NCBI GenBank assembly: GCA_902766185.1
Contig: CACXCQ010000069.1
Location: 1 to 8,760 of the forward strand
DNA length: 8,760 bases
Source: an uncultured Eubacteriales bacterium
GTDB taxonomy: Bacteria; Bacillota; Clostridia; Peptostreptococcales; Anaerovoracaceae
Reading direction: 5' to 3'
Shown here one piece after another: positions 4 to 8,455 of this stretch. Numbering within the stretch: the stretch's first letter is position 1; each line of letters starts with the position of its first letter. The position numbers were made by a program, and so were the translations under genes. The notes beneath the pieces were generated by a model. That model had not been told where the DNA came from, did not search any database, and was given only the letters and a program-made list of their open reading frames with translations.

Positions 4-216
4 TCATACCGGAAGCAGAAGATTGCTCTCTGCGGCAACGATTTCCTTGACCACGTGTTCAGTAGTCCTGACGAACTCCGATAAGGCCGGCGTGGCGTTC
101 TTCAGGGTCTTGACCATGTAGCCCATGGTGCGGGAATGGATCTGGTGTCCCATGAGGGTCAGGAAATATGCCGCGGTCAGCCCGCTGGTGCCGCCGCCGA
201 TGATGGCGACAAGTCT
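4..216 (-). pseudogene. Remnant of an FAD/NAD(P)-binding oxidoreductase
   Basis: Read on the minus strand, about 70 codons end in TGA at 4-6. The front part (145-213) reads VAIIGGGTSGLTAAYFL followed by TLMGH. This is the nucleotide-binding GxGxxG-type loop and first helix of the pyridine nucleotide-disulfide oxidoreductase/glutamate synthase small-subunit type, whose usual form is IGGGPAGLTAAYFLALMGH. After that, the expected beta strand ending in an acidic residue is missing. An unrelated-looking helical stretch of about 45 residues follows and then a stop. No ATG/GTG/TTG with a ribosome site lies just before the Rossmann segment; the only upstream in-frame ATG (456) is inside the plus-strand peptide gene region. 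These families are normally several hundred residues, so I read it as a decayed fragment. The origin of the tail is unknown. Confidence 0.55.
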
Positions 217-252
217 AAACGCTCCGACAAATGATTTGACCGAACATGTGCG

Positions 253-282
253 TTGACAGTGCTGCTCGGGTCGGGTTAAAAT
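253..282 (+). promoter_or_regulatory. Promoter P1 upstream of the first peptide gene
   Basis: TTGACA at 253-258 is a perfect -35 box. It is followed after 18 bases by TAAAAT at 277-282, and the region is AT-rich down to 288. It would start transcription near 290, leaving a leader of about 57 bases before the GTG at 347. The same -35/18/-10 arrangement recurs before the second peptide gene. Confidence 0.7.
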
Positions 283-312
283 ATATAACGGAGAAAGGGC
301 AGGTGCCTGCAG

Positions 313-329
313 CGCACTTGTCCGGTGCG
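313..329 (+). other. Small hairpin in the leader of the first peptide gene
   Basis: CGCAC (313-317) can pair with GTGCG (325-329) across a 7-base loop, just upstream of the AGGAGGAG ribosome site at 333-340. A further inverted repeat, GCAGG/CCTGC, lies at 299-310. The leader of the second peptide gene also has a 5-bp GC hairpin before its ribosome site. The stems are short, so a regulatory role is only a suggestion. Confidence 0.25.
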
Positions 330-346
330 GAGAGGAGGAGTGCACA

Positions 347-445
347 GTGAAGAAGGTATATGAAAGAGCAGAAATGGAAATTGTGAACTTCGACTGTGAT
401 GTCATTCTGACGTCAAGTGTCACTACTACTGCTACTGGGCCATAG
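347..445 (+). CDS. RiPP-like precursor peptide A1 (32 aa)
   Basis: The gene starts at GTG 347, six bases after the strong ribosome site AGGAGGAG (333-340), and ends at TAG 443-445. The product begins MKKVYERAEMEIVNF, continues DCD, VILTSS, and ends in a Thr-rich tail VTTTATGP. It aligns without gaps to the second peptide (552-647) through residue 27, with 17 identical positions: conserved M-x-K-x-YE-x-AE-x-E-x-VNF, then D-x-ILTS, then TT. A charged, conserved front half and a variable Ser/Thr-rich back half is the usual layout of a leader plus core of a ribosomally made, modified peptide. A PqqD-like leader-binding protein follows downstream. It has no membrane segment or Gly-Gly motif. It has one cysteine (Cys17), absent from its partner. 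GC is about 42% by hand count, below its neighbours. From memory, similar MKK-Y-PE-E-V-F-DVITTS micro-proteins are common in Clostridia and mostly called hypothetical. The coding call is firm; the function is inferred. Confidence 0.8.
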   Translation: MKKVYERAEMEIVNFDCDVILTSSVTTTATGP

Positions 446-462
446 ACATTCATCATAATGAG

Positions 463-492
463 TTGACGCTGACGCCGGATCGGGACTAAAAT
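463..492 (+). promoter_or_regulatory. Promoter P2 upstream of the second peptide gene
   Basis: TTGACG (463-468) and TAAAAT (487-492) are separated by 18 bases, the same spacing and the same -10 hexamer as P1. A TCGGG motif sits just before the -10 in both. It would start transcripts near 500 and drive the second peptide gene and the five enzyme genes behind it. Confidence 0.6.
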
Positions 493-510
493 GTGTACAT
501 AGTGTTGAAT

Positions 511-529
511 GCGCCAACGGTATGGGCGC
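511..529 (+). other. Small hairpin in the leader of the second peptide gene
   Basis: GCGCC (511-515) can pair with GGCGC (525-529) over a 9-base loop, ahead of the ribosome site AAAGGA (539-544). It occupies the same place as the hairpin in the first peptide leader, which suggests the whole promoter-leader-gene unit was duplicated. Function is unknown. Confidence 0.25.
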
Positions 530-551
530 TGAGCACAGAAAGGAAAACACA

Positions 552-647
552 GTGAGAAAAGAGTACGAGAAAGCGGAGCTGGAAGTCGTAAACTTCAGTG
601 AGGATATCATCCTTACTTCACAGATCACCACCGCAGAGCCCACATAA
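552..647 (+). CDS. RiPP-like precursor peptide A2 (31 aa)
   Basis: The gene starts at GTG 552, seven bases after AAAGGA (539-544), and stops at TAA 645-647. The product begins MRKEYEKAELEVVNF, continues SED, IILTS, and ends QITTAEPT. It is a clear paralogue of A1. The front 15 residues differ almost only conservatively (K/R, R/K, M/L, I/V), while the tails differ in length and sequence. Third codon positions have drifted widely between the copies, yet the protein is conserved, which argues for purifying selection and an old duplication. Candidate modification sites in the tail are Thr22, Ser23, Thr26, Thr27 and Thr31. It has no Cys. The PqqD-like gene begins 24 bases after the stop, with no terminator between, so A2 and the enzymes should share a transcript. 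The role as a modified-peptide precursor is inferred from paralogy and neighbours. Confidence 0.8.
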   Translation: MRKEYEKAELEVVNFSEDIILTSQITTAEPT

Positions 648-660
648 ACGGCGACGGACA

Positions 661-675
661 GTGAGAAACAAATGA
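661..675 (+). other. Four-codon mini-ORF overlapping the PqqD-like start
   Basis: GTG AGA AAC AAA TGA (661-675) overlaps the ATG of the next gene as ATGA (672-675). The sequence before and at the GTG, GACAGTGAGAAA, nearly copies the initiation site of peptide A2, CACAGTGAGAAA at 548-559. It may be a translational-coupling leader for a gene with a weak ribosome site, or the vestige of a third peptide copy. It could also be chance. Confidence 0.3.
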
Positions 676-938
676 AACTGAAAGACGAATACATCACATA
701 TGATGCGGGAGAAGGCAAGTCCCTCCTCGTGGCTTCCGGATCGGAGACGAAAACGTTCCGGGGGTTTCTGAGGATGAACGCCACATCCCGTTTTGTTGTC
801 GATTGTCTGAGAGAAGACACGACGAAGGAAGAGATCCTGGACAGGATGGCGGAGGAATACGATGCGGACAGAGCATCGATGGCCTCGGATCTGGACATGA
901 TCATCGACACGCTGAATGAAATAGGAGCGCTGGAGTAG
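672..938 (+). CDS. PqqD-family peptide chaperone (RiPP recognition element)
   Basis: An 88-residue protein of about the normal PqqD length (80-100). The core pattern is visible: F-R-G-F-L-R-MN-A-T-S-R-F-V-V-D-C-L at residues 29-46 (family form LNxxGxxIWxLL), then T-KEEI at 51-55, a hydrophobic/acidic helix to EEYDAD (61-66), and a final D-L-D-x-I-I-D-x-LNEIGALE (73-88). PqqD proteins are small cytoplasmic winged-helix-like folds that bind the leader of a precursor peptide and present it to modifying enzymes. Here the obvious clients are the two peptides just upstream. The start has no strong Shine-Dalgarno, so it may be coupled to the ATGA-overlapping mini-ORF. The next gene starts 2 bases after its stop. 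The subtype resembles PqqD relatives found next to HPr-kinase-like genes, from memory of that family. The family call is confident; the partner assignment is inference. Confidence 0.85.
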   Translation: MKLKDEYITYDAGEGKSLLVASGSETKTFRGFLRMNATSRFVVDCLREDTTKEEILDRMAEEYDADRASMASDLDMIIDTLNEIGALE

Positions 939-940
939 TC

Positions 941-2125
941 ATGTACCGCGTGCTTTCCGTTGGCATCCTCAGGGGGCTCAACGGCTTGAATACGTCCATG
1001 ATGAACCTTTACCGGAACATGGACCGGGATCTGGTGCAGTGGGATTTCCTCATCATGAACAAATTTCGGGACGAGGAGAGCCAGCTGGAGACCGAGATCC
1101 GCGACCTGGGGGGACGGATCCATTATTTGACGTACGACAATCTGGGGATCCCCAAGGGGAGCCGAAAGAAATTCCGGGAACTGCTGTCTTCAGATCCGGA
1201 GATCATGGGAGTGCATGTGCATGCGCTCTCTCTTAATGTGTGGCCGCTTTGGGCGGCAGGTCAGCTGGATCTGCCGGTTCGCGTCATCCAGGGCCATTCC
1301 GGTCCCTCCCGCAGCAGTCTCGCCTCCAAAGGCCCGGTGATGAATGCTTCGGTCCGCGCCAGACTGCGCATGATCGAAGGAGATGATTACGACCGGTGGG
1401 CCTGCAGCGACCTGGTGGGCGCGAACCTCTACCGGGGTCTTCCTTTTGAGGTCTTCCCAAACGCAGTGGATACGAAACGATTCGCCTTCAATCCGGTCTA
1501 CCGGCAGGTGGTCCGCAGCCAGCTGGACATCGGGGAGGATACAGTAGTTATCGGATTTGTGGGGACGCTCTATCCGATCAAGAACCTGCTGTTCGCGCTG
1601 CAGGTCTTCAAGTGCTATCACCGGAGAAATCCCAACTCCCGCATGCTCATTCTCGGCGGACGGGTCGTGGAGGAAACGGAGTACCTGGACAAATGCATGG
1701 CCTATCCGAAGGAAAACGGCATGGAAGACGCAGTCCGTTTTCTGGGCGTGCAGCCCTCCATCGACGTCTTCTACTCAGCCTTCGACGCCATGCTGTGTCC
1801 TTCCCGGCACGAAGGGTTCCCGAATGTCCTGGTGGAGGCGCAGGCCGCCGGCGTACCGTGCCTCGTGTCCGACGAAATCACCGAAACAGTCCGGCTGACG
1901 GATCTGGTCACCATGCTCCCGCTGGAGCAGCCCGGAGAGGACAAGCCTGAGCAGGTCTGGGCAGAGAAGCTGGAACAGATCCTGCCGGAGAATCCGGAAA
2001 GACGATCCTACGGCAAGGAGATCAAGTCCGCCGGCTACGATATCCGGGACGCCGGCAGACGCCTGACGGAGCATTACCTGAACCGGATCGAAGCGTGGGA
2101 GAGGCGCCGCGCCAAGGAGAAATAA
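941..2125 (+). CDS. Glycosyltransferase family 4 (EpsF-like)
   Basis: A 394-residue protein of normal GT-B length. The N-terminal domain opens MYRVLSVGILRGLNGLNTSM, then MNLYRNMDRDLVQWDFLIMN (residues 21-40). That opening is like EpsF-type exopolysaccharide transferases, although the usual GGxE loop is altered here to RGLNGLN. The hinge FPNAVDTKRF is at 172-181. The C-terminal domain begins VVIGFVGTLYPIKN (202-215). The GT4 signature E-x7-E is EGFPNVLVE at 291-299, followed by AQAAGVP. It should move a sugar from a nucleotide donor; the acceptor is not readable from sequence. It begins 2 bases after the PqqD-like gene with GGAG five bases upstream, so it is cotranscribed. A glycosyltransferase inside a PqqD/kinase/nucleotidyltransferase operon suggests sugar addition to the peptide, but surface polysaccharide synthesis is the alternative. 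No membrane segment is seen. Confidence 0.88.
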   Translation: MYRVLSVGILRGLNGLNTSMMNLYRNMDRDLVQWDFLIMNKFRDEESQLETEIRDLGGRIHYLTYDNLGIPKGSRKKFRELLSSDPEIMGVHVHALSLNVWPLWAAGQLDLPVRVIQGHSGPSRSSLASKGPVMNASVRARLRMIEGDDYDRWACSDLVGANLYRGLPFEVFPNAVDTKRFAFNPVYRQVVRSQLDIGEDTVVIGFVGTLYPIKNLLFALQVFKCYHRRNPNSRMLILGGRVVEETEYLDKCMAYPKENGMEDAVRFLGVQPSIDVFYSAFDAMLCPSRHEGFPNVLVEAQAAGVPCLVSDEITETVRLTDLVTMLPLEQPGEDKPEQVWAEKLEQILPENPERRSYGKEIKSAGYDIRDAGRRLTEHYLNRIEAWERRRAKEK

Positions 2126-2133
2126 AGAGCAGT

Positions 2134-2922
2134 ATGGCAGATGGAAAGCAGACAGACAGCAGAACATTCCGGATCAGGCTGGCGGAAGTCGCCTTCGACG
2201 TGCAGCCCCTGTCCGCGGATCTGGCGGAATTCTGCGCCCGATATATCGAGGAGGGCCCGGAACGGCAAGGCGGCGAAGCGGACCATCTCATCCGGCTAAC
2301 TGAGGACGACCTGCGGTACGAGGACGAACTGACCCTGCAGATCTTGCAGCAGCATGCCATCTCCCGGGAGGAATCGGAGCAGCTCGCTCTCTGCCGGAAG
2401 GCGGCGGAGAAACTGGTGCTTTCGGATACGCTGCTCATGCACGGGGCGGCGATCCGGTTCAAAGGCAGGGCATACATCTTCACCGCTCCCAGCGGCACAG
2501 GCAAGACCACTCACGTTTCCCTTTGGGAAAAGCGGTTCGGAGATCAGGTCACGATCATCAACGGCGACAAACCTTTTCTGAAGATTCGTCAGGACGGTGT
2601 CTTCGTCTACGGAAGCCCTTGGAGCGGCAAGGAACAGCAGAACGCGAATGTCTCCGCGCCTTTGGCGGGGATCGCCTGTCTTCAGCAGGCAGAGGAGAAC
2701 CGTGCAGAGCCCATGGGGCATCAGGAAAAATGGGAATTCCTGCTGAACCAGATGAACCGCAGTTTGGGTCCGCAGCAGATGGCTCATGCCCTGCAGCTCC
2801 TCGATCGTCTGATCGGCAGCGTGCCCATCTTCCGGCTGTGCTGTGATCCGCATCCTCAGGCGGTGGAAACGGCGCTGGCCGCATTCAGGAAATACGAGAT
2901 ATGTACGAGATCCGGGAAATAG
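2134..2922 (+). CDS. HPr-kinase-like P-loop kinase, probable peptide kinase
   Basis: A 262-residue protein of the PEPCK/HPr kinase superfamily. Key segments: LLMHGAAIRFKGRAYIFTAP (residues 100-119), with the Walker A loop APSGTGKTT at 118-126; IINGDKPFLK (141-150) in the position of the second acidic motif; and VYGSPWSGKEQQNANVS (158-174), typical of the HprK/ScmC-like branch. The Ser-binding regulatory N-terminal domain of true HprK is absent, so this is not the carbon-regulation enzyme. In lasso clusters such as paeninodin, homologues (PadeK type) phosphorylate the C-terminal Ser of the precursor. Here the Thr/Ser-rich tails of the two peptides are the likely targets (inference). The start was set at ATG 2134. 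A GTG at 2095 also opens the frame, but it lies inside the previous gene and has no good ribosome site; AGGAG (2115-2119) precedes 2134. It overlaps the next gene by 22 bases. Confidence 0.82.
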   Translation: MADGKQTDSRTFRIRLAEVAFDVQPLSADLAEFCARYIEEGPERQGGEADHLIRLTEDDLRYEDELTLQILQQHAISREESEQLALCRKAAEKLVLSDTLLMHGAAIRFKGRAYIFTAPSGTGKTTHVSLWEKRFGDQVTIINGDKPFLKIRQDGVFVYGSPWSGKEQQNANVSAPLAGIACLQQAEENRAEPMGHQEKWEFLLNQMNRSLGPQQMAHALQLLDRLIGSVPIFRLCCDPHPQAVETALAAFRKYEICTRSGK

Positions 2923-4052
2923 ATCAGACAACAAGAGACTACCTGCTTCTGCTCAGATGCGGGACACAGGACAGGACCGGCTGCAGGGAGCGCATCCTGC
3001 GGATGGACCTGGATCTGCTGTGCGATCAGTTCCGGGACAACGGGCTGAATCCCTTCATCTGCCGGGTGCTGCGCGAAAACGGGATCGAACACGAGGGGTT
3101 CAGCCGCTCCTATGACGCCAACTGCGCCCACCTGCTGCTTCTGGACATGGAGCGGGAGCAGATCCTCCAAAGGCTGGCCGGGCAGAAGATCCGCTGCACG
3201 CCCCTCAAAGGCGCTGTGATCGGAAAACTCTATCCTGCCTTTGGACTGAGGACCATGGGGGATCTGGATATCCTCATCGGGAAGAAAGACAGAAAAAGGG
3301 CGGGCATGCTCATGGAGGAACTGGGCTACGATGCCCACGACCACGGCGTCAACTACCATACGGAGTTCAGCAAAGGCTACGTGATGGTGGAACTGCACCA
3401 CACGCTGATGAAGTCCTCCATAAACGATGCGTGGGAGGACTGGATGAAGGGGGTTCCCGCCAGGCTGAAGCGGGACGGAGAGGATCCCTTCCGGTGTGAC
3501 CTGAGCGAGGCGGACCACTACATTTTCATGATCGCCCACGCGTATAAGCACTTCATCGCCAGCGGCATCGGCCTGCGCTTCCTGCTGGACCTCTGGTACT
3601 GGGATAAGGCTTACCCCGGGACCGGGCAGGATCCCTTCGTGCAGGACACGCTCAGGGCAATGGGGCTGGAGGAGTATGCCCGGCGGGCGGAACAGCTCTC
3701 GCAGGCGCTGTTCGGCGTGCCGGGGGAAGAACTTCTGCTCACCGCCGAACAGGAAAAAGACCTGGCCTTCTACCTCGATTCCGGGGTGGGCGGAAACGAG
3801 GAGCAGAAGCACATGATCATCCGGGATCCGCAGGCGCTGCAGGGCAGAGGCGTCCTCGGCACCTTCCGGGGGATCCTGGAACAGCTGGAGGAGAGGGAGG
3901 ACGTCTATGCGTTCATGGCCCCCTTTGCCTACCGCCACCGCTGGGCAAGGCCAGCATTTGTGCTGCGATGCATCCTCCGGGACTTCCTGGCTGACCCGCG
4001 GGCACTGCTGGGCCGGTATCGCACCCTGAAGAAAAAAGGAGACTTCAAATGA
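2901..4052 (+). CDS. Nucleotidyltransferase family protein (NTP_transf_5 type)
   Basis: A 383-residue protein with the marks of the uncharacterised nucleotidyltransferase family PF14907. It has PLKGAVIGKLYP (101-112), then the catalytic loop GLRTMGDLDILI (115-126) with the metal-binding pair Asp121/Asp123. VMVELHHTL (161-169) gives a probable third carboxylate, Glu164. The helical signature HAYKHFIASGIGLRFLLDLW lies at 213-232. The pattern is of the DNA polymerase beta-like fold, moving an NMP or similar group from a nucleotide donor. Homologues sit in lasso clusters beside the kinase. In the pseudomycoidin cluster the corresponding protein (PsmN) is linked with hexose decoration, so the true donor may be a nucleotide sugar. 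The start at ATG 2901, with AGGA at 2887-2890, lies inside the kinase gene, which implies translational coupling. Its stop overlaps the next start as ATGA. The exact substrate is unknown. Confidence 0.82.
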   Translation: MYEIREIDQTTRDYLLLLRCGTQDRTGCRERILRMDLDLLCDQFRDNGLNPFICRVLRENGIEHEGFSRSYDANCAHLLLLDMEREQILQRLAGQKIRCTPLKGAVIGKLYPAFGLRTMGDLDILIGKKDRKRAGMLMEELGYDAHDHGVNYHTEFSKGYVMVELHHTLMKSSINDAWEDWMKGVPARLKRDGEDPFRCDLSEADHYIFMIAHAYKHFIASGIGLRFLLDLWYWDKAYPGTGQDPFVQDTLRAMGLEEYARRAEQLSQALFGVPGEELLLTAEQEKDLAFYLDSGVGGNEEQKHMIIRDPQALQGRGVLGTFRGILEQLEEREDVYAFMAPFAYRHRWARPAFVLRCILRDFLADPRALLGRYRTLKKKGDFK

Positions 4053-4516
4053 GTCACCAGAAGGAAAACGCGATTCAGATCGATGAAATACCGGGAAGCT
4101 CCATTGAGACAGAACTGAGGGAGCACGGCTTTGTGATCAGCCCGGCGAAGGGGTTCAGCATGACCCCTCTGCTTCCGCCGGAGAAGTGTCTGGTGAAGAT
4201 CGTGCAGTTGCAGAGCCGGCCGAAGAAGTACGATGTCGTCCTCTTTCGTGCTCCCGGTGGGAAAATCGTGCTCCATCGGATCCTTGAGGTCCATCCGGAG
4301 CATTTTGTGCTCTGCGGTGATGCCAACCTGAAGAAAGAAGGACTCGTGAGAGACGCGCAGATCATGGGCATTCTCGACTCCTTCGTTCGCGATACGGGCA
4401 AAAAGCCGCTGCACTGGGTAAAGACTACAGATCTGTGGTATCGCGGCTATTCCCGGCTGATCGTCGCCGCGGGGGAGATCCGAAGGAGAAGACGCCGGAG
4501 AAAACGCCGGCGCTGA
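4049..4516 (+). CDS. S24/S26 family serine peptidase with Arg-rich tail
   Basis: A 155-residue protein. The catalytic box AKGFSMTPLLPP (33-44) places the nucleophile at Ser37. YDVVLFRAP (61-69) and KIVLHRILEV (72-81) follow, with His76 where bacterial signal peptidase I has its general-base lysine. The Gly-Asp box CGDANLKKEG (89-98) and the final strand IMGILDSF (105-112) complete the fold. A Ser/His pair recalls the SipW/ER-type branch. Unlike SipW there is no N-terminal transmembrane anchor, so the protein looks cytoplasmic. The C-terminus, residues 145-155, is ten arginines and one lysine, written with mixed Arg codons and so not a simple DNA repeat. Within this operon the natural guess is removal of the peptide leader, but this is inferred. 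The start is firm: AAGGAG (4036-4041) seven bases upstream, and an ATGA overlap with the nucleotidyltransferase gene. It is the last gene of the operon. Confidence 0.8.
   Translation: MSHQKENAIQIDEIPGSSIETELREHGFVISPAKGFSMTPLLPPEKCLVKIVQLQSRPKKYDVVLFRAPGGKIVLHRILEVHPEHFVLCGDANLKKEGLVRDAQIMGILDSFVRDTGKKPLHWVKTTDLWYRGYSRLIVAAGEIRRRRRRRKRRR
4493..4512. other. GC hairpin at the convergent gene ends
   Basis: CGCCGG (4493-4498) pairs with CCGGCG (4507-4512) over an 8-base loop. It lies inside the last arginine codons of the peptidase gene, next to the stop of the opposing gene at 4520-4522. Neither strand has a T-run, so it is at best a weak or Rho-assisted end for the two convergent transcripts. 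It may simply follow from Arg codon choice. Confidence 0.3.
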
Positions 4517-5517: not shown

Positions 5518-6420
5518 ATGAGCAACAGACACGCATATCTCGTGATGGCGCATCACAGGCCGGATCTGCTCCAGATGCTTCTGGAGGAGCTGGATGATCC
5601 GCGCAATGATATCTTCCTCCACATCGACCGAAAAGCGGGTGCGGACATGGAGCCGTCCAGGTTTTGCGTCAGGCAGAGCCGCCTGACGGTCATCCCCTCC
5701 ATGAAGGTGGAGTGGGCGGGGTACTCGCAGGTGGCCTGCGGGATGGCGCTACTGAAAGCTGCGGTGGGAACGGAGAAATACGCCTACGTCCACATGATGA
5801 CCGGGGCGAGTTATCCGCTGTGCACGCAGGACGAGATCCACGCCTTTTTCGAGGCCAATGCCGGCAGAGAGTTCATGGAGATCAGCCCCCGAAACTGTGA
5901 GGAGAGAGTGCGATATCGCTGGATCTTCAACGAGATCGGCAAGAGATACGAAACGGACAGCTGGTACAGGCTGATCCACAAGGTGCAGCAGAAGTTTGGT
6001 ATTCTGCAGCAGAGCTGGGGCATCGACAGGTTTCGCAAATACGGGATGGAATGCCGGAAGGGCCTGGCCTACTGGTCCGTCACCGGGGAGCTTGCCGCGT
6101 ATCTGGTCAGCCGGGAAAAGCTGATCCGCCGGATGCTGAGGCACTCCGTTTACGGGGATGAGATCTTCGCGCAGACCATAGCCTATAACAGCCCCTTCCG
6201 GGAGAACCTGTTCGATGAAGAGGGCAGGCCGAACGGATCCCGCCGGGCGACCACCTGGCTGCTGGAGAATGCGGGCATTCGCAGAGAAGGACACAACTTC
6301 CGGCGGGAGGACATTCCGTTCCTCCGGCAGACAGACGATCTCTTCGCCCTTAAATTCGAAGGGAAAGACGGACCGATGCTGATCCGGCAGATCAGGGAAT
6401 GGATGGAGGAGCGTGCCTGA
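5518..6420 (+). CDS. GT14 'Branch' family beta-1,6-N-acetylglucosaminyltransferase-like protein
   Basis: A 300-residue protein with the core-2/I-branching (PF02485) pattern. It opens HAYLVMAHHRPDLLQMLLEE (5-24), then DIFLHIDRKA (31-40), WAGYSQVACGMALLKAAV (66-83), YVHMMTGASYPL (90-101), KGLAYWSVTGELAAYLV (181-197) and GDEIFAQTIAYNSPF (213-227). The conserved Trp-Gly-x-S, SG/TGxxYPL and DE boxes are all in order. The animal members add GlcNAc to glycans. Bacterial members lack the signal-anchor, as here, and are found in polysaccharide and capsule loci; their substrates are mostly unknown. The start is supported by AAGGAAGGG eight to sixteen bases upstream. It is transcribed away from the GT2 gene from a shared intergenic region of about 130 bases. 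No clear terminator follows, so some read-through into the next gene is possible. Confidence 0.87.
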   Translation: MSNRHAYLVMAHHRPDLLQMLLEELDDPRNDIFLHIDRKAGADMEPSRFCVRQSRLTVIPSMKVEWAGYSQVACGMALLKAAVGTEKYAYVHMMTGASYPLCTQDEIHAFFEANAGREFMEISPRNCEERVRYRWIFNEIGKRYETDSWYRLIHKVQQKFGILQQSWGIDRFRKYGMECRKGLAYWSVTGELAAYLVSREKLIRRMLRHSVYGDEIFAQTIAYNSPFRENLFDEEGRPNGSRRATTWLLENAGIRREGHNFRREDIPFLRQTDDLFALKFEGKDGPMLIRQIREWMEERA

Positions 6421-7043: not shown

Positions 7044-7060
7044 AAGGAATCGATCCCGGT

Positions 7061-7107
7061 AAAAAAAACACTGCAGGCAGCGGTACTTGCCTGCAGTGGT
7101 TTTTTTT
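7061..7107. terminator. Bidirectional Rho-independent terminator
   Basis: CACTGCAGGCA (7069-7079) pairs perfectly with TGCCTGCAGTG (7088-7098), an 11-bp stem with an 8-base loop. It is flanked by eight A (7061-7068) and eight T (7100-7107), so it works for the FMN reductase on the plus strand and the CoA-transferase on the minus strand. The T-run overlaps the CoA-transferase TAA stop. Confidence 0.93.
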
Positions 7108-8455
7108 ATTCTCCTACATACGGCGTGTTGAATCTCTCTTCAAAGGCCTTTGACAGTTCGTCCACCACCGACGGATGGGCGATGTTGATCAGGGCACGGG
7201 CACGCTCCCGGAGGGTCTTGCCCTTCAGGTGGGCGATGCCGTACTCGGTGATGATGTAGTCTACGTCGTAGCGGTTGGTGGTCACCGCAGCGCCGTTATC
7301 GATGTAGGGTACGATCTTGGAAATGATGGTGCCGTCCTTTTTCGTTACGATGGAGGACATGGCGATGATGGAGATGCCCTTGCCGTCCTCCGCTCTGGAG
7401 GCACCGCGGACGAAGTCGACCTGTCCGCCTACACCGGAGAACTGTTTCGTGCCGATGGAGGCAGCTACCACCTGACCCATGAAGTCCACCTGGAGAGCGG
7501 AGTTGATGGAGACCATCTTATTGTTCTTCGCGATGACCGTGGGGTCGTTGACGTAGTCCACCGGACGGAGCATCAGCATGGGGTTGTGATCCGCGAAGTC
7601 ATAGAGCCGCTTCGTGCCCATCAGGAAGGTGACCACGATCTGGCCCTTGTGAAGAGTCTTCTCGGAGCAGTCGATGACACCAGCTTCCACCAGATCCAGA
7701 ACGCCGTCGGCGATCATCTCGGAGTGGATGCCCAGATGCTTGTGGTTCCGCAGGGAAGCCAGCACCGCGTCGGGGATGGCGCCGATGCCCAGCTGCAGCG
7801 TGGACCCGTCTTCGATCAGGGAGGCGCAGTATTCGCCGATGGCCATTTCCACATCTCCAACCACCGGAGGCTGGGATTCCATCAGCGGCTCGTTCATCTC
7901 AACGATGGCGTCCAGCTGGCTGACGTGTACGTGGGTGTCACCGTAGGCGAAGGGCATGTTCTCGTTGACCTGGGCGATGACGATCTTCGCGGAGCGGATC
8001 GCCTGGAAGGTGTATCCGGACTCCACACCGAGGTTGCAGTAGCCCCACTGATCCGGCGGGGAGACCATCACCAGGCACACATCGAAGTTCAGGATCCCCC
8101 GGCGCATCCAGATGGGCAGCTCGGAGAAGTACACCGGGATGACATCGCCGTTGCCGTGGGCAATGCTGTTTCTTGTTCCGGCGCCGAAGAAGATGCCGTC
8201 AAAGGTGAAGTTGTCCTTGTACTTCGGGTTCGTGTATTCTCCCTTGCCCAGAGAGACCATGTGGGTGATGTGCACGCCGCGGTAGGCGTCGTGGTTGGCT
8301 ACCATGGCGTCGATCAGCCCTGTGGGCTCGCAGATGCAGTGTCCGAAGATCACGTGATCGTGGGATTTGATCAGCTTCACCGCCTCCTCTGCGGTGGTCA
8401 GCCTTTCCTGATATATGTCCTTCCAGTTCATGGGGTTTCCGCTCATCTCTTTCAT
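7106..8455 (-). CDS. Acetate/butyrate/4-hydroxybutyrate-type CoA-transferase
   Basis: A 449-residue class I CoA-transferase of the acetyl-CoA hydrolase/transferase family, of normal length (430-460). It shows GIGAIPDAV (223-231), GIHSEMIADGV (242-252) with the likely catalytic Glu246 that forms the glutamyl-CoA intermediate, and GVGGQVDFVRGA (341-352), the CoA-site motif. VDYIITEYGIAHLKGKT near the C-terminus is also typical. It exchanges CoA between an acyl-CoA and acetate in fermentation. The motif form points to the 4-hydroxybutyrate or butyryl-CoA:acetate groups, but I cannot fix the substrate. The start was set at ATG 8453-8455 because AGGAGGT lies eight bases before it; the longer frame from 8473 would translate through that site. 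It has no cofermentation gene beside it here. The AT-rich region 8456-8553 must carry the promoter, but I see no clean -35/-10 pair. Confidence 0.9.
   Translation of the reverse strand: MKEMSGNPMNWKDIYQERLTTAEEAVKLIKSHDHVIFGHCICEPTGLIDAMVANHDAYRGVHITHMVSLGKGEYTNPKYKDNFTFDGIFFGAGTRNSIAHGNGDVIPVYFSELPIWMRRGILNFDVCLVMVSPPDQWGYCNLGVESGYTFQAIRSAKIVIAQVNENMPFAYGDTHVHVSQLDAIVEMNEPLMESQPPVVGDVEMAIGEYCASLIEDGSTLQLGIGAIPDAVLASLRNHKHLGIHSEMIADGVLDLVEAGVIDCSEKTLHKGQIVVTFLMGTKRLYDFADHNPMLMLRPVDYVNDPTVIAKNNKMVSINSALQVDFMGQVVAASIGTKQFSGVGGQVDFVRGASRAEDGKGISIIAMSSIVTKKDGTIISKIVPYIDNGAAVTTNRYDVDYIITEYGIAHLKGKTLRERARALINIAHPSVVDELSKAFEERFNTPYVGE

What the first reader, a model, noticed from the sequence alone, without database searches (positions are those of the whole stretch)
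347..938. Two tandem 31-32 residue precursor-like peptides feeding a PqqD-type chaperone
Seen: two GTG-started micro-genes with proper ribosome sites, 17 identical aligned residues, a conserved charged front (YE-AE-E-VNF) and divergent Thr/Ser-rich ends, directly followed by a PqqD-like gene. Known: PqqD-type domains bind leader peptides of RiPP precursors. Inferred: these are leader-core precursors of a modified peptide, with leader about residues 1-20 and core from about ILTS onward. The length, tandem arrangement and lack of Cys in A2 do not match lasso peptides, lanthipeptides or sactipeptides, so this may be a new class.
Basis: partly seen in the sequence, partly recalled or inferred. Interest (0 to 1): 0.88.

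Follow-up and report, generated by a model that had tools for sequence, protein, structure and literature searches.

The report
Tandem linear-phosphopeptide precursor genes
Two tiny neighbouring genes encode short peptides that are likely bound, phosphorylated and trimmed by the enzymes encoded beside them, and most of their relatives found in a sample of related genomes sit directly behind a gene for a protein that is predicted to be exported, which hints at an unexplored partnership at the cell surface.

Summary
Peptide genes A1 (347-445) and A2 (552-647) belong to a family that a profile built without them finds at 33.4 and 28.4 bits; the next window ORF scores 1.0, the best of 60 shuffles 6.4. 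They precede a PqqD-type RRE, a GT4 glycosyltransferase, an HprK-like kinase, an NTP_transf_5 protein and an S26-type peptidase. That gene set matches the linear polyphosphorylated peptides (LPP) published in May 2026 (PMC13381572), so this is not a new RiPP class. Predicted route: the RRE holds the leader, the kinase phosphorylates Ser23, the peptidase cuts after Ile20. In other genomes of the class the picture looks new. The peptides occur in 27 of 245 genomes, up to 22 copies each, mostly not beside the cassette. Of those 27, 27 carry the kinase and RRE, 26 the peptidase, 25 NTP_transf_5. Of 105 distinct peptide genes, 101 follow a co-directional gene (median gap 20 nt); in 75 of 84 with a visible start that gene looks signal-peptide-bearing, against 117 of 405 other ORFs. 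I read this as one trans-acting LPP cassette serving many peptide satellites of surface proteins. The window pair itself has no such partner in view.

The parts
347..445 (+). Peptide A1, 32 aa, GTG start, LPP-type precursor (predicted)
   Evidence: ORF; family profile without window rows 33.4 bits
347..406 (+). A1 predicted leader, residues 1-20; Y5 opens the YxxA variant of the YxxP motif
   Evidence: Inferred by alignment with the LppA description in PMC13381572
407..442 (+). A1 predicted core LTSSVTTTATGP; Ser23 codon at 413-415 is the predicted phosphorylation site
   Evidence: Ser is 18 residues after Tyr5, as S3 after Y-16 in LppA; inferred
552..647 (+). Peptide A2, 31 aa, GTG start, LPP-type precursor (predicted), tandem paralogue of A1
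   Evidence: ORF; 28.4 bits without window rows; 17 identical residues with A1
612..644 (+). A2 predicted core LTSQITTAEPT; Ser23 codon at 618-620 is the predicted phosphorylation site
   Evidence: Inferred from the same spacing
672..938 (+). PqqD-type RRE (LppB-like), 88 aa
   Evidence: PF05402 42.8 bits; family profile finds the LppB structure 9x8z at E 3.5e-4; N36 and D73 align with LppB N33 and D70
941..2125 (+). GT4 glycosyltransferase, 394 aa, between RRE and kinase genes
   Evidence: PF00534 E 1.1e-19
2134..2922 (+). HprK-like kinase (LppK-like), 262 aa
   Evidence: No family in the Pfam scan; a 98% identical database protein carries PF27840; model pLDDT 91 resembles PEPCK and HprK/P folds at modest TM-scores
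2901..4052 (+). NTP_transf_5 nucleotidyltransferase-like protein (LppN-like), 383 aa
   Evidence: PF14907 133.6 bits, cut-off 31.2
4049..4516 (+). S26/SipW-type peptidase (LppS-like), 155 aa, Ser37, His76, Asp91
   Evidence: Curated families only below cut-off; Ser, His-Arg and Gly-Asp identical in 90 of 90 aligned sequences and 20 of 20

Best explanation
The window encodes two short peptides, likely precursors, and beside them enzymes predicted to bind, phosphorylate and trim them, in what looks like a clostridial version of the linear polyphosphorylated peptide (LPP) pathway. The PqqD-type RRE is predicted to hold the leader through Tyr5, the HprK-like kinase to phosphorylate Ser23 (position 3 of the core), and the SipW-type S26 peptidase to cut after Ile20, freeing an 11-12 residue core; NTP_transf_5 and the GT4 enzyme may decorate the phosphate. 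In related genomes the same cassette likely works in trans on many precursors, most of them encoded directly behind a gene for a predicted exported protein. Shown by calls: the genes, the family, the co-occurrence and the pairing. Inferred: every chemical step, the cleavage site, the host class (from the names of relatives), and any functional link between peptide core and exported partner.
For: Gene order A-A-B-GT-K-N-S in the window, the LPP core set without its exporter. RRE residues that contact the leader in LppB are kept or similar: N33 to N36 (20 of 20 aligned), Y60 to Y63, E61 to D64, D70 to D73. Peptidase Ser-to-His spacing 39 in window and LppS; Ser, His-Arg and Gly-Asp in 90 of 90. 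Peptides: of 105 distinct ones in other genomes 102 had the motif as searched and 101 of those a Ser 18-20 residues after the aromatic residue (at 19: 89% Ser, at other positions 0-16%). Kinase fold supported. Genome link: peptides in 27 of 245 genomes, all 27 among the 74 with the kinase (Fisher p 1.8e-16, kinship not corrected); RRE 27 of 27, peptidase 26 of 27, PF14907 25 of 27. Pairing: 101 of 105 within 300 nt behind a co-directional gene, median gap 20 nt; 75 of 84 with visible start signal-peptide-like against 117 of 405 control ORFs.
Against: Both window peptides have Ala where the motif has Pro (YERA, YEKA); P-13A weakened binding in LppA, and only 5 of 102 motif-bearing relatives have Ala there. 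No exporter gene was seen in the 8,760-base contig. The consensus after YxxP differs from the published YxxPxVLxHQxIxFETxxS. The catalytic Asp of LppS lies 25 residues after its His, the conserved Asp here 15 after, so that residue's equivalence is inferred. The RRE profile fits the lasso RRE TbiB1 better (E 7e-10) than LppB (3.5e-4). The window pair has no exported partner in view, and in the kinase-proximal set only 8 of 15 scorable upstream genes look signal-peptide-bearing. The system is rare in the window's own genus: peptides in 3 of 49 genomes, PqqD relatives in 4 of 49, the window's included. Ser conservation is partly built in, since the search profile contains that column.
Confidence: 0.77

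Rival explanations
1. A phosphorylated lasso peptide cluster whose cyclase and leader protease lie elsewhere in the genome. The PqqD, HprK-like kinase and NTP_transf_5 proteins would then serve a lasso peptide of the paeninodin or pseudomycoidin kind.
For: Lasso clusters of rumen bacteria carry HPr kinase, PqqD and nucleotidyltransferase genes (PMC7533575, passages only); the RRE profile's best solved match is the lasso RRE TbiB1; the window RRE's best NCBIfam match is the lasso PqqD chaperone model, below its cut-off. A2's predicted core has a Glu at position 9.
Against: No cyclase or B2 protease among the 11 window proteins scanned; an S26 peptidase is present instead; A1's predicted core has no Asp or Glu to close a ring (ring rule recalled, no call). 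The rest of the fragmented genome was not searched for a cyclase.
Confidence: 0.09
2. The peptides are unmodified small partner proteins that are co-translated with exported proteins and help their export or folding; the kinase cassette is coincidental.
For: 101 of 105 relatives follow another gene at a median gap of 20 nt, and 75 of 84 scorable partners look signal-peptide-bearing; few peptides lie near the cassette.
Against: Peptides were found only in kinase-bearing genomes (27 of 74 against 0 of 171), and most keep the YxxP motif and one fixed Ser. The window pair lies in front of the cassette with no exported partner.
Confidence: 0.1
3. A radical-SAM RiPP (sactipeptide or ranthipeptide type) in which the cassette only phosphorylates or trims; the window would be a degenerate case.
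For: Radical-SAM genes lie next to peptides in L007, L014, L021, L041 and L049 and, by homology alone, L006 (no Pfam match); most of those tails hold several Cys.
Against: No radical-SAM protein among the 11 window proteins scanned and no Cys in either predicted core; A1's one Cys lies in the leader.
Confidence: 0.03

Closest known systems
Linear polyphosphorylated peptides (LPP), lppA-K-B-S-D-N of Paenibacillus alginolyticus (PMC13381572, 2026; seen: abstract, found passages, and in full the sections on discovery, heterologous expression, RRE structures, leader cleavage and discussion)
   Same: Short precursor with Tyr-based leader motif and a Ser 18 residues later, discrete RRE, HprK-like kinase, SipW-type peptidase, NTP transferase, no cyclase in the cluster, glycosyltransferases nearby
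   Different: YxxA instead of YxxP in the window; different consensus after YxxP; no exporter in the contig; in other genomes of the class precursors are dispersed, up to 22 per genome, mostly behind predicted exported-protein genes, where the paper reports one to three per cluster
Paeninodin-type and pseudomycoidin-type phosphorylated lasso peptides
   Same: PqqD (B1), HprK-like kinase, NTP transferase
   Different: No macrolactam cyclase and no B2 cysteine protease among the window proteins scanned; S26 peptidase instead
HPr-rel-A system and SynChlorMet cassette (NCBIfam TIGR04352, TIGR04353, TIGR04249)
   Same: HprK-related protein plus PqqD-family peptide chaperone
   Different: All scores below the curated cut-offs
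Prochlorosin-type systems (one enzyme, many precursors; recalled, and described in an abstract listed)
   Same: One modifying machinery, many precursor genes
   Different: Here kinase, RRE and S26 peptidase, and the precursors are coupled to exported-protein genes

Membership tests
LPP (linear polyphosphorylated peptides) | Precursor with conserved YxxP leader motif and variable C terminus | tested here: inconclusive
   Window peptides have YxxA; relatives 77 YxxP and 14 FxxP of 102 with a motif
LPP (linear polyphosphorylated peptides) | Ser at core position 3, 18 residues after the motif Tyr | tested here: met
   Ser23 is 18 after Tyr5 in A1 and A2; Ser at 18-20 in 101 of 102 motif-bearing relatives; phosphorylation itself untested
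LPP (linear polyphosphorylated peptides) | Discrete RRE with leader-holding residues | tested here: met
   PF05402; N36 and D73 match LppB N33 and D70
LPP (linear polyphosphorylated peptides) | HprK-like kinase | tested here: met
   PF27840 on a 98% identical protein, fold like PEPCK and HprK/P
LPP (linear polyphosphorylated peptides) | SipW-type (SpI-like) leader peptidase with Ser, His, Asp | tested here: met
   Conserved residues; curated family scores are below cut-off; Asp equivalence inferred
LPP (linear polyphosphorylated peptides) | NTP transferase | tested here: met
   PF14907, 133.6 bits
LPP (linear polyphosphorylated peptides) | MsbA-like exporter | tested here: inconclusive
   None seen in the contig; ABC transporter ORFs flank the cassette in 6 of 7 loci scanned (L005, L012, L019, L025, L078, L081; not L064)
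LPP (linear polyphosphorylated peptides) | Polyphosphorylated linear product | not testable with these tools
   Needs expression and mass spectrometry
LPP (linear polyphosphorylated peptides) | RRE falls in the LPP clade of the RRE tree | not tested
   No set of published LPP RREs was at hand
Lasso peptides (phosphorylated) | Macrolactam cyclase and B2 protease in the cluster | tested here: not met
   Neither among the 11 window proteins scanned; the rest of the fragmented genome not searched

The most novel reading that the evidence does not exclude
In Clostridia the LPP pathway is a genome-wide surface-protein accessory system: one kinase-RRE-peptidase cassette acts in trans on many precursor peptides, each encoded as a satellite directly behind its own Sec-exported, adhesin-like protein, and the phosphorylated, possibly glycosylated core joins or decorates that protein at the cell surface.
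Probability: 0.35. Interest if true: 0.85.

Novelty: new variant of a known kind. Interest (0 to 1): 0.64.

Why it matters
The role of LPPs and of their phosphorylated lasso cousins is unknown; the 2026 paper only speculates about biofilms. Finding precursors hard-wired to genes of predicted exported proteins, some with LRR, Ig-like or lectin-like domains, gives that question a handle: each such peptide has a candidate partner that can be tested for binding, attachment or display. It would make these bacteria examples of RiPP chemistry used to build the cell surface and not to make a free metabolite. It also places LPP-type cassettes in genomes that mostly bear clostridial names (the paper's main text does not mention Clostridia, its supplements were not seen), and shows that looking only inside the gene cluster misses many precursors.

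Tried and rejected
Chance ORFs: rejected. New RiPP class: rejected in favour of LPP type. Lasso peptide: no cyclase or B2 among the 11 window proteins scanned; two amidotransferase-like neighbours in other loci proved to be a GlmS-like protein (SIS and GATase domains) in L015 and an asparagine synthase in L125 that I take for ordinary AsnB. HPr-rel-A or SynChlorMet membership: scores below cut-off. A single-sequence peptide search in 197 family genomes found one weak hit besides the window: too insensitive, replaced by the profile searches. A loose regular expression over small ORFs gave mostly noise and was replaced by the iterative profile. The PqqD single-sequence search of the PDB gave mainly artefactual matches to designed repeat proteins; the profile searches are used. 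The kinase profile against PDB sequences gave nothing useful. Similarity of peptide C-termini within a genome was only modestly above that between genomes (mean 0.24 against 0.16 identity over 14 residues), so I claim no common tail motif. Literature searches that could have shown the pairing with exported proteins (listings only) showed nothing on it; in the LPP paper's main text 'clostridia', 'secreted' and 'surface' do not occur.

Full report
What is in the window. The window is a whole contig (G000:C69, 8,760 bases) of a fragmented, 83%-complete genome of 1.94 Mb. Two GTG-started ORFs, A1 (347-445) and A2 (552-647), are followed on the same strand by a PqqD-domain protein (672-938), a GT4 glycosyltransferase (941-2125), an HprK-like protein (2134-2922), an NTP_transf_5 protein (2901-4052) and a small S26-like protein (4049-4516). 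The short overlaps of the last three genes suggest one operon (inference). Beyond it lie a GT2 gene on the other strand, a Core-2/I-branching type gene and an FMN reductase, and an acetyl-CoA hydrolase/transferase.

The peptides are real family members. With the kinase as bait I obtained 80 loci, the best 80 of 583 confirmed. Among 14,992 small ORFs in 84 sources (the window, 80 kinase loci and 3 PqqD loci) an iterative profile found 34 peptides at E 2.7e-7 or better, the next at 2.6; two are the window's. A profile from 29 non-window rows scores A1 at 33.4 and A2 at 28.4 bits against 1.0 for the next of 104 small ORFs in the window and at most 6.4 in 60 shuffles. The consensus is roughly K-K-x-Y-E-x-P-x-x-E-x-x-x-F-x-x-x-D-V-I-T-T-S followed by a variable tail.

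The cassette. In those 84 sources PqqD was seen in 70, the S26 protein in 62, NTP_transf_5 in 28 and a peptide in 25 (summed; many loci are cut by contig ends). ABC transporter ORFs flank the cassette in 6 of 7 loci scanned. The S26 protein keeps the Ser, the His-Arg and the Gly-Asp in 90 of 90 sequences. The kinase has no match in the Pfam copy used but its 98% identical database twin carries PF27840; its model (pLDDT 91) resembles PEPCK (TM 0.43-0.51 over the query) and HprK/P (0.33-0.37) structures.

What it is. This is the gene set of the linear polyphosphorylated peptides described by Popov and colleagues in May 2026 (PMC13381572): precursor, HprK-like kinase, discrete RRE, SipW-type leader peptidase, exporter, NTP transferase, no cyclase. 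There the leader motif is YxxPxVLxHQxIxFETxxS and the kinase adds several phosphates to core Ser3, 18 residues after the motif Tyr. In A1 and A2 Tyr5 and Ser23 have exactly that spacing, which places the predicted cut after Ile20. The RRE residues that hold the leader in LppB map onto the window protein: N33 to N36, Y60 to Y63, E61 to D64, D70 to D73; N36 is invariant in 20 aligned sequences. Points against: both window peptides have Ala for the motif Pro, the exporter is not in the contig, the Asp of the peptidase sits at a different distance from His than in LppS, and the RRE profile scores the lasso RRE TbiB1 better than LppB. I therefore call it LPP-type, with clade membership untested.

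What looks new. A profile search of 245 genomes of the same class found peptides in 27 (E up to 1e-3), with up to 22 copies in one genome (110 matches including the window's two). All 27 are among the 74 of 245 genomes with a kinase match at E 1e-20 or better; RRE 27 of 27, S26 protein 26 of 27, PF14907 25 of 27. The peptides are mostly not beside the cassette: 7 of 107 entries have the kinase and 8 of 107 the PqqD within 6 kb inside the stretches fetched, which reach about 5 kb to each side or to the contig end, so these are lower bounds. Instead, 101 of 105 distinct peptide genes follow a co-directional gene within 300 nt, 93 of them within 50 nt, median 20 nt. Where the upstream gene's start was in view, 75 of 84 look signal-peptide-bearing by a simple hydropathy rule, against 117 of 405 other ORFs of the same stretches (Fisher p 1.3e-25, kinship not corrected). 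Two of the nine negatives (L232, L240) visibly start like signal peptides that the rule missed. The four exceptions are a second copy of a tandem (L173), one at a contig start (L216), and two with gaps of 654 and 1,012 nt (L225, L226). Of 55 partner proteins scanned (those up to 760 aa of 75), 8 match Big_2, 3 BspA-type LRR, 3 laminin-G-like and 2 transglutaminase-core domains; of the 75 partners 36 fall in one homology cluster, and 186 of 241 alignments reach both C-termini.

Results that limit this. In the kinase-proximal set the pairing is weaker: 21 of 32 peptides have an upstream gene within 300 nt, 8 of 15 scorable ones signal-peptide-like, and the window's A1 has no exported gene in the 346 bases before it. 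In the window's own genus peptides were found in 3 of 49 genomes and PqqD relatives in 4 of 49, so the system is patchy there. At least nine genomes with a strong kinase match have no peptide at E 1e-3.

Mechanism. Most likely: leader bound by the RRE, Ser23 phosphorylated, leader removed by the S26 protein, core possibly extended by NTP_transf_5 and the GT4 enzyme, then export. In the dispersed setting the simplest reading is that each core is made together with, and acts on or with, the exported protein encoded in front of it. No chemical step was tested here.

Caveats. The class search profile contains the conserved Ser column, so its conservation among hits (Ser at position 19 after the aromatic residue in 89%) is partly built in. 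Genomes are related, so p values are rough. The signal-peptide rule is crude; its background of 117 of 405 shows that, and the control ORFs come from the same stretches, some rich in exported proteins. The searched literature is open-access only; the LPP paper's supplements, which may list Clostridia, were not available.

Noticed in passing
L006, L007, L014, L021, L041, L049: Radical-SAM genes (SPASM in L014; L006 by homology only) sit beside peptides of this family, most with several Cys in the tail; L041 holds two kinase-peptide-rSAM-type-PqqD units in tandem, the second rSAM-type ORF not scanned.
   Followed up: partly
Partner proteins in G255, G289, G343 (e.g. L186, L187, L208, L221): Different exported partners share almost the same signal peptide (MRKRRILSLLLAVAV...TASA), as if recruited as a set.
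   Followed up: no
L019:8959-10451: An AbiEii-type gene with a smaller companion ORF sits between kinase and PqqD of the cassette, like an inserted toxin-antitoxin pair.
   Followed up: no
window 4-456, minus strand: ORF with a dinucleotide-binding-like AIIGGGTSGLTAAY stretch, overlapping A1 antisense near the contig end; looks like a cut or decayed flavoprotein-like gene (motif recalled).
   Followed up: no
window 7060-7110: Inverted repeat followed by a T run after the FMN reductase gene, probably a terminator (by eye).
   Followed up: no
G363, G431, G472, G387, G249, G340, G376, G290, G315: Genomes with a strong full-length kinase match but no peptide at E 1e-3; they may carry diverged precursors.
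   Followed up: no
L187, about 5,690-5,790: A third peptide-like reading frame of this family without an acceptable start codon, possibly a decayed or fused copy.
   Followed up: no
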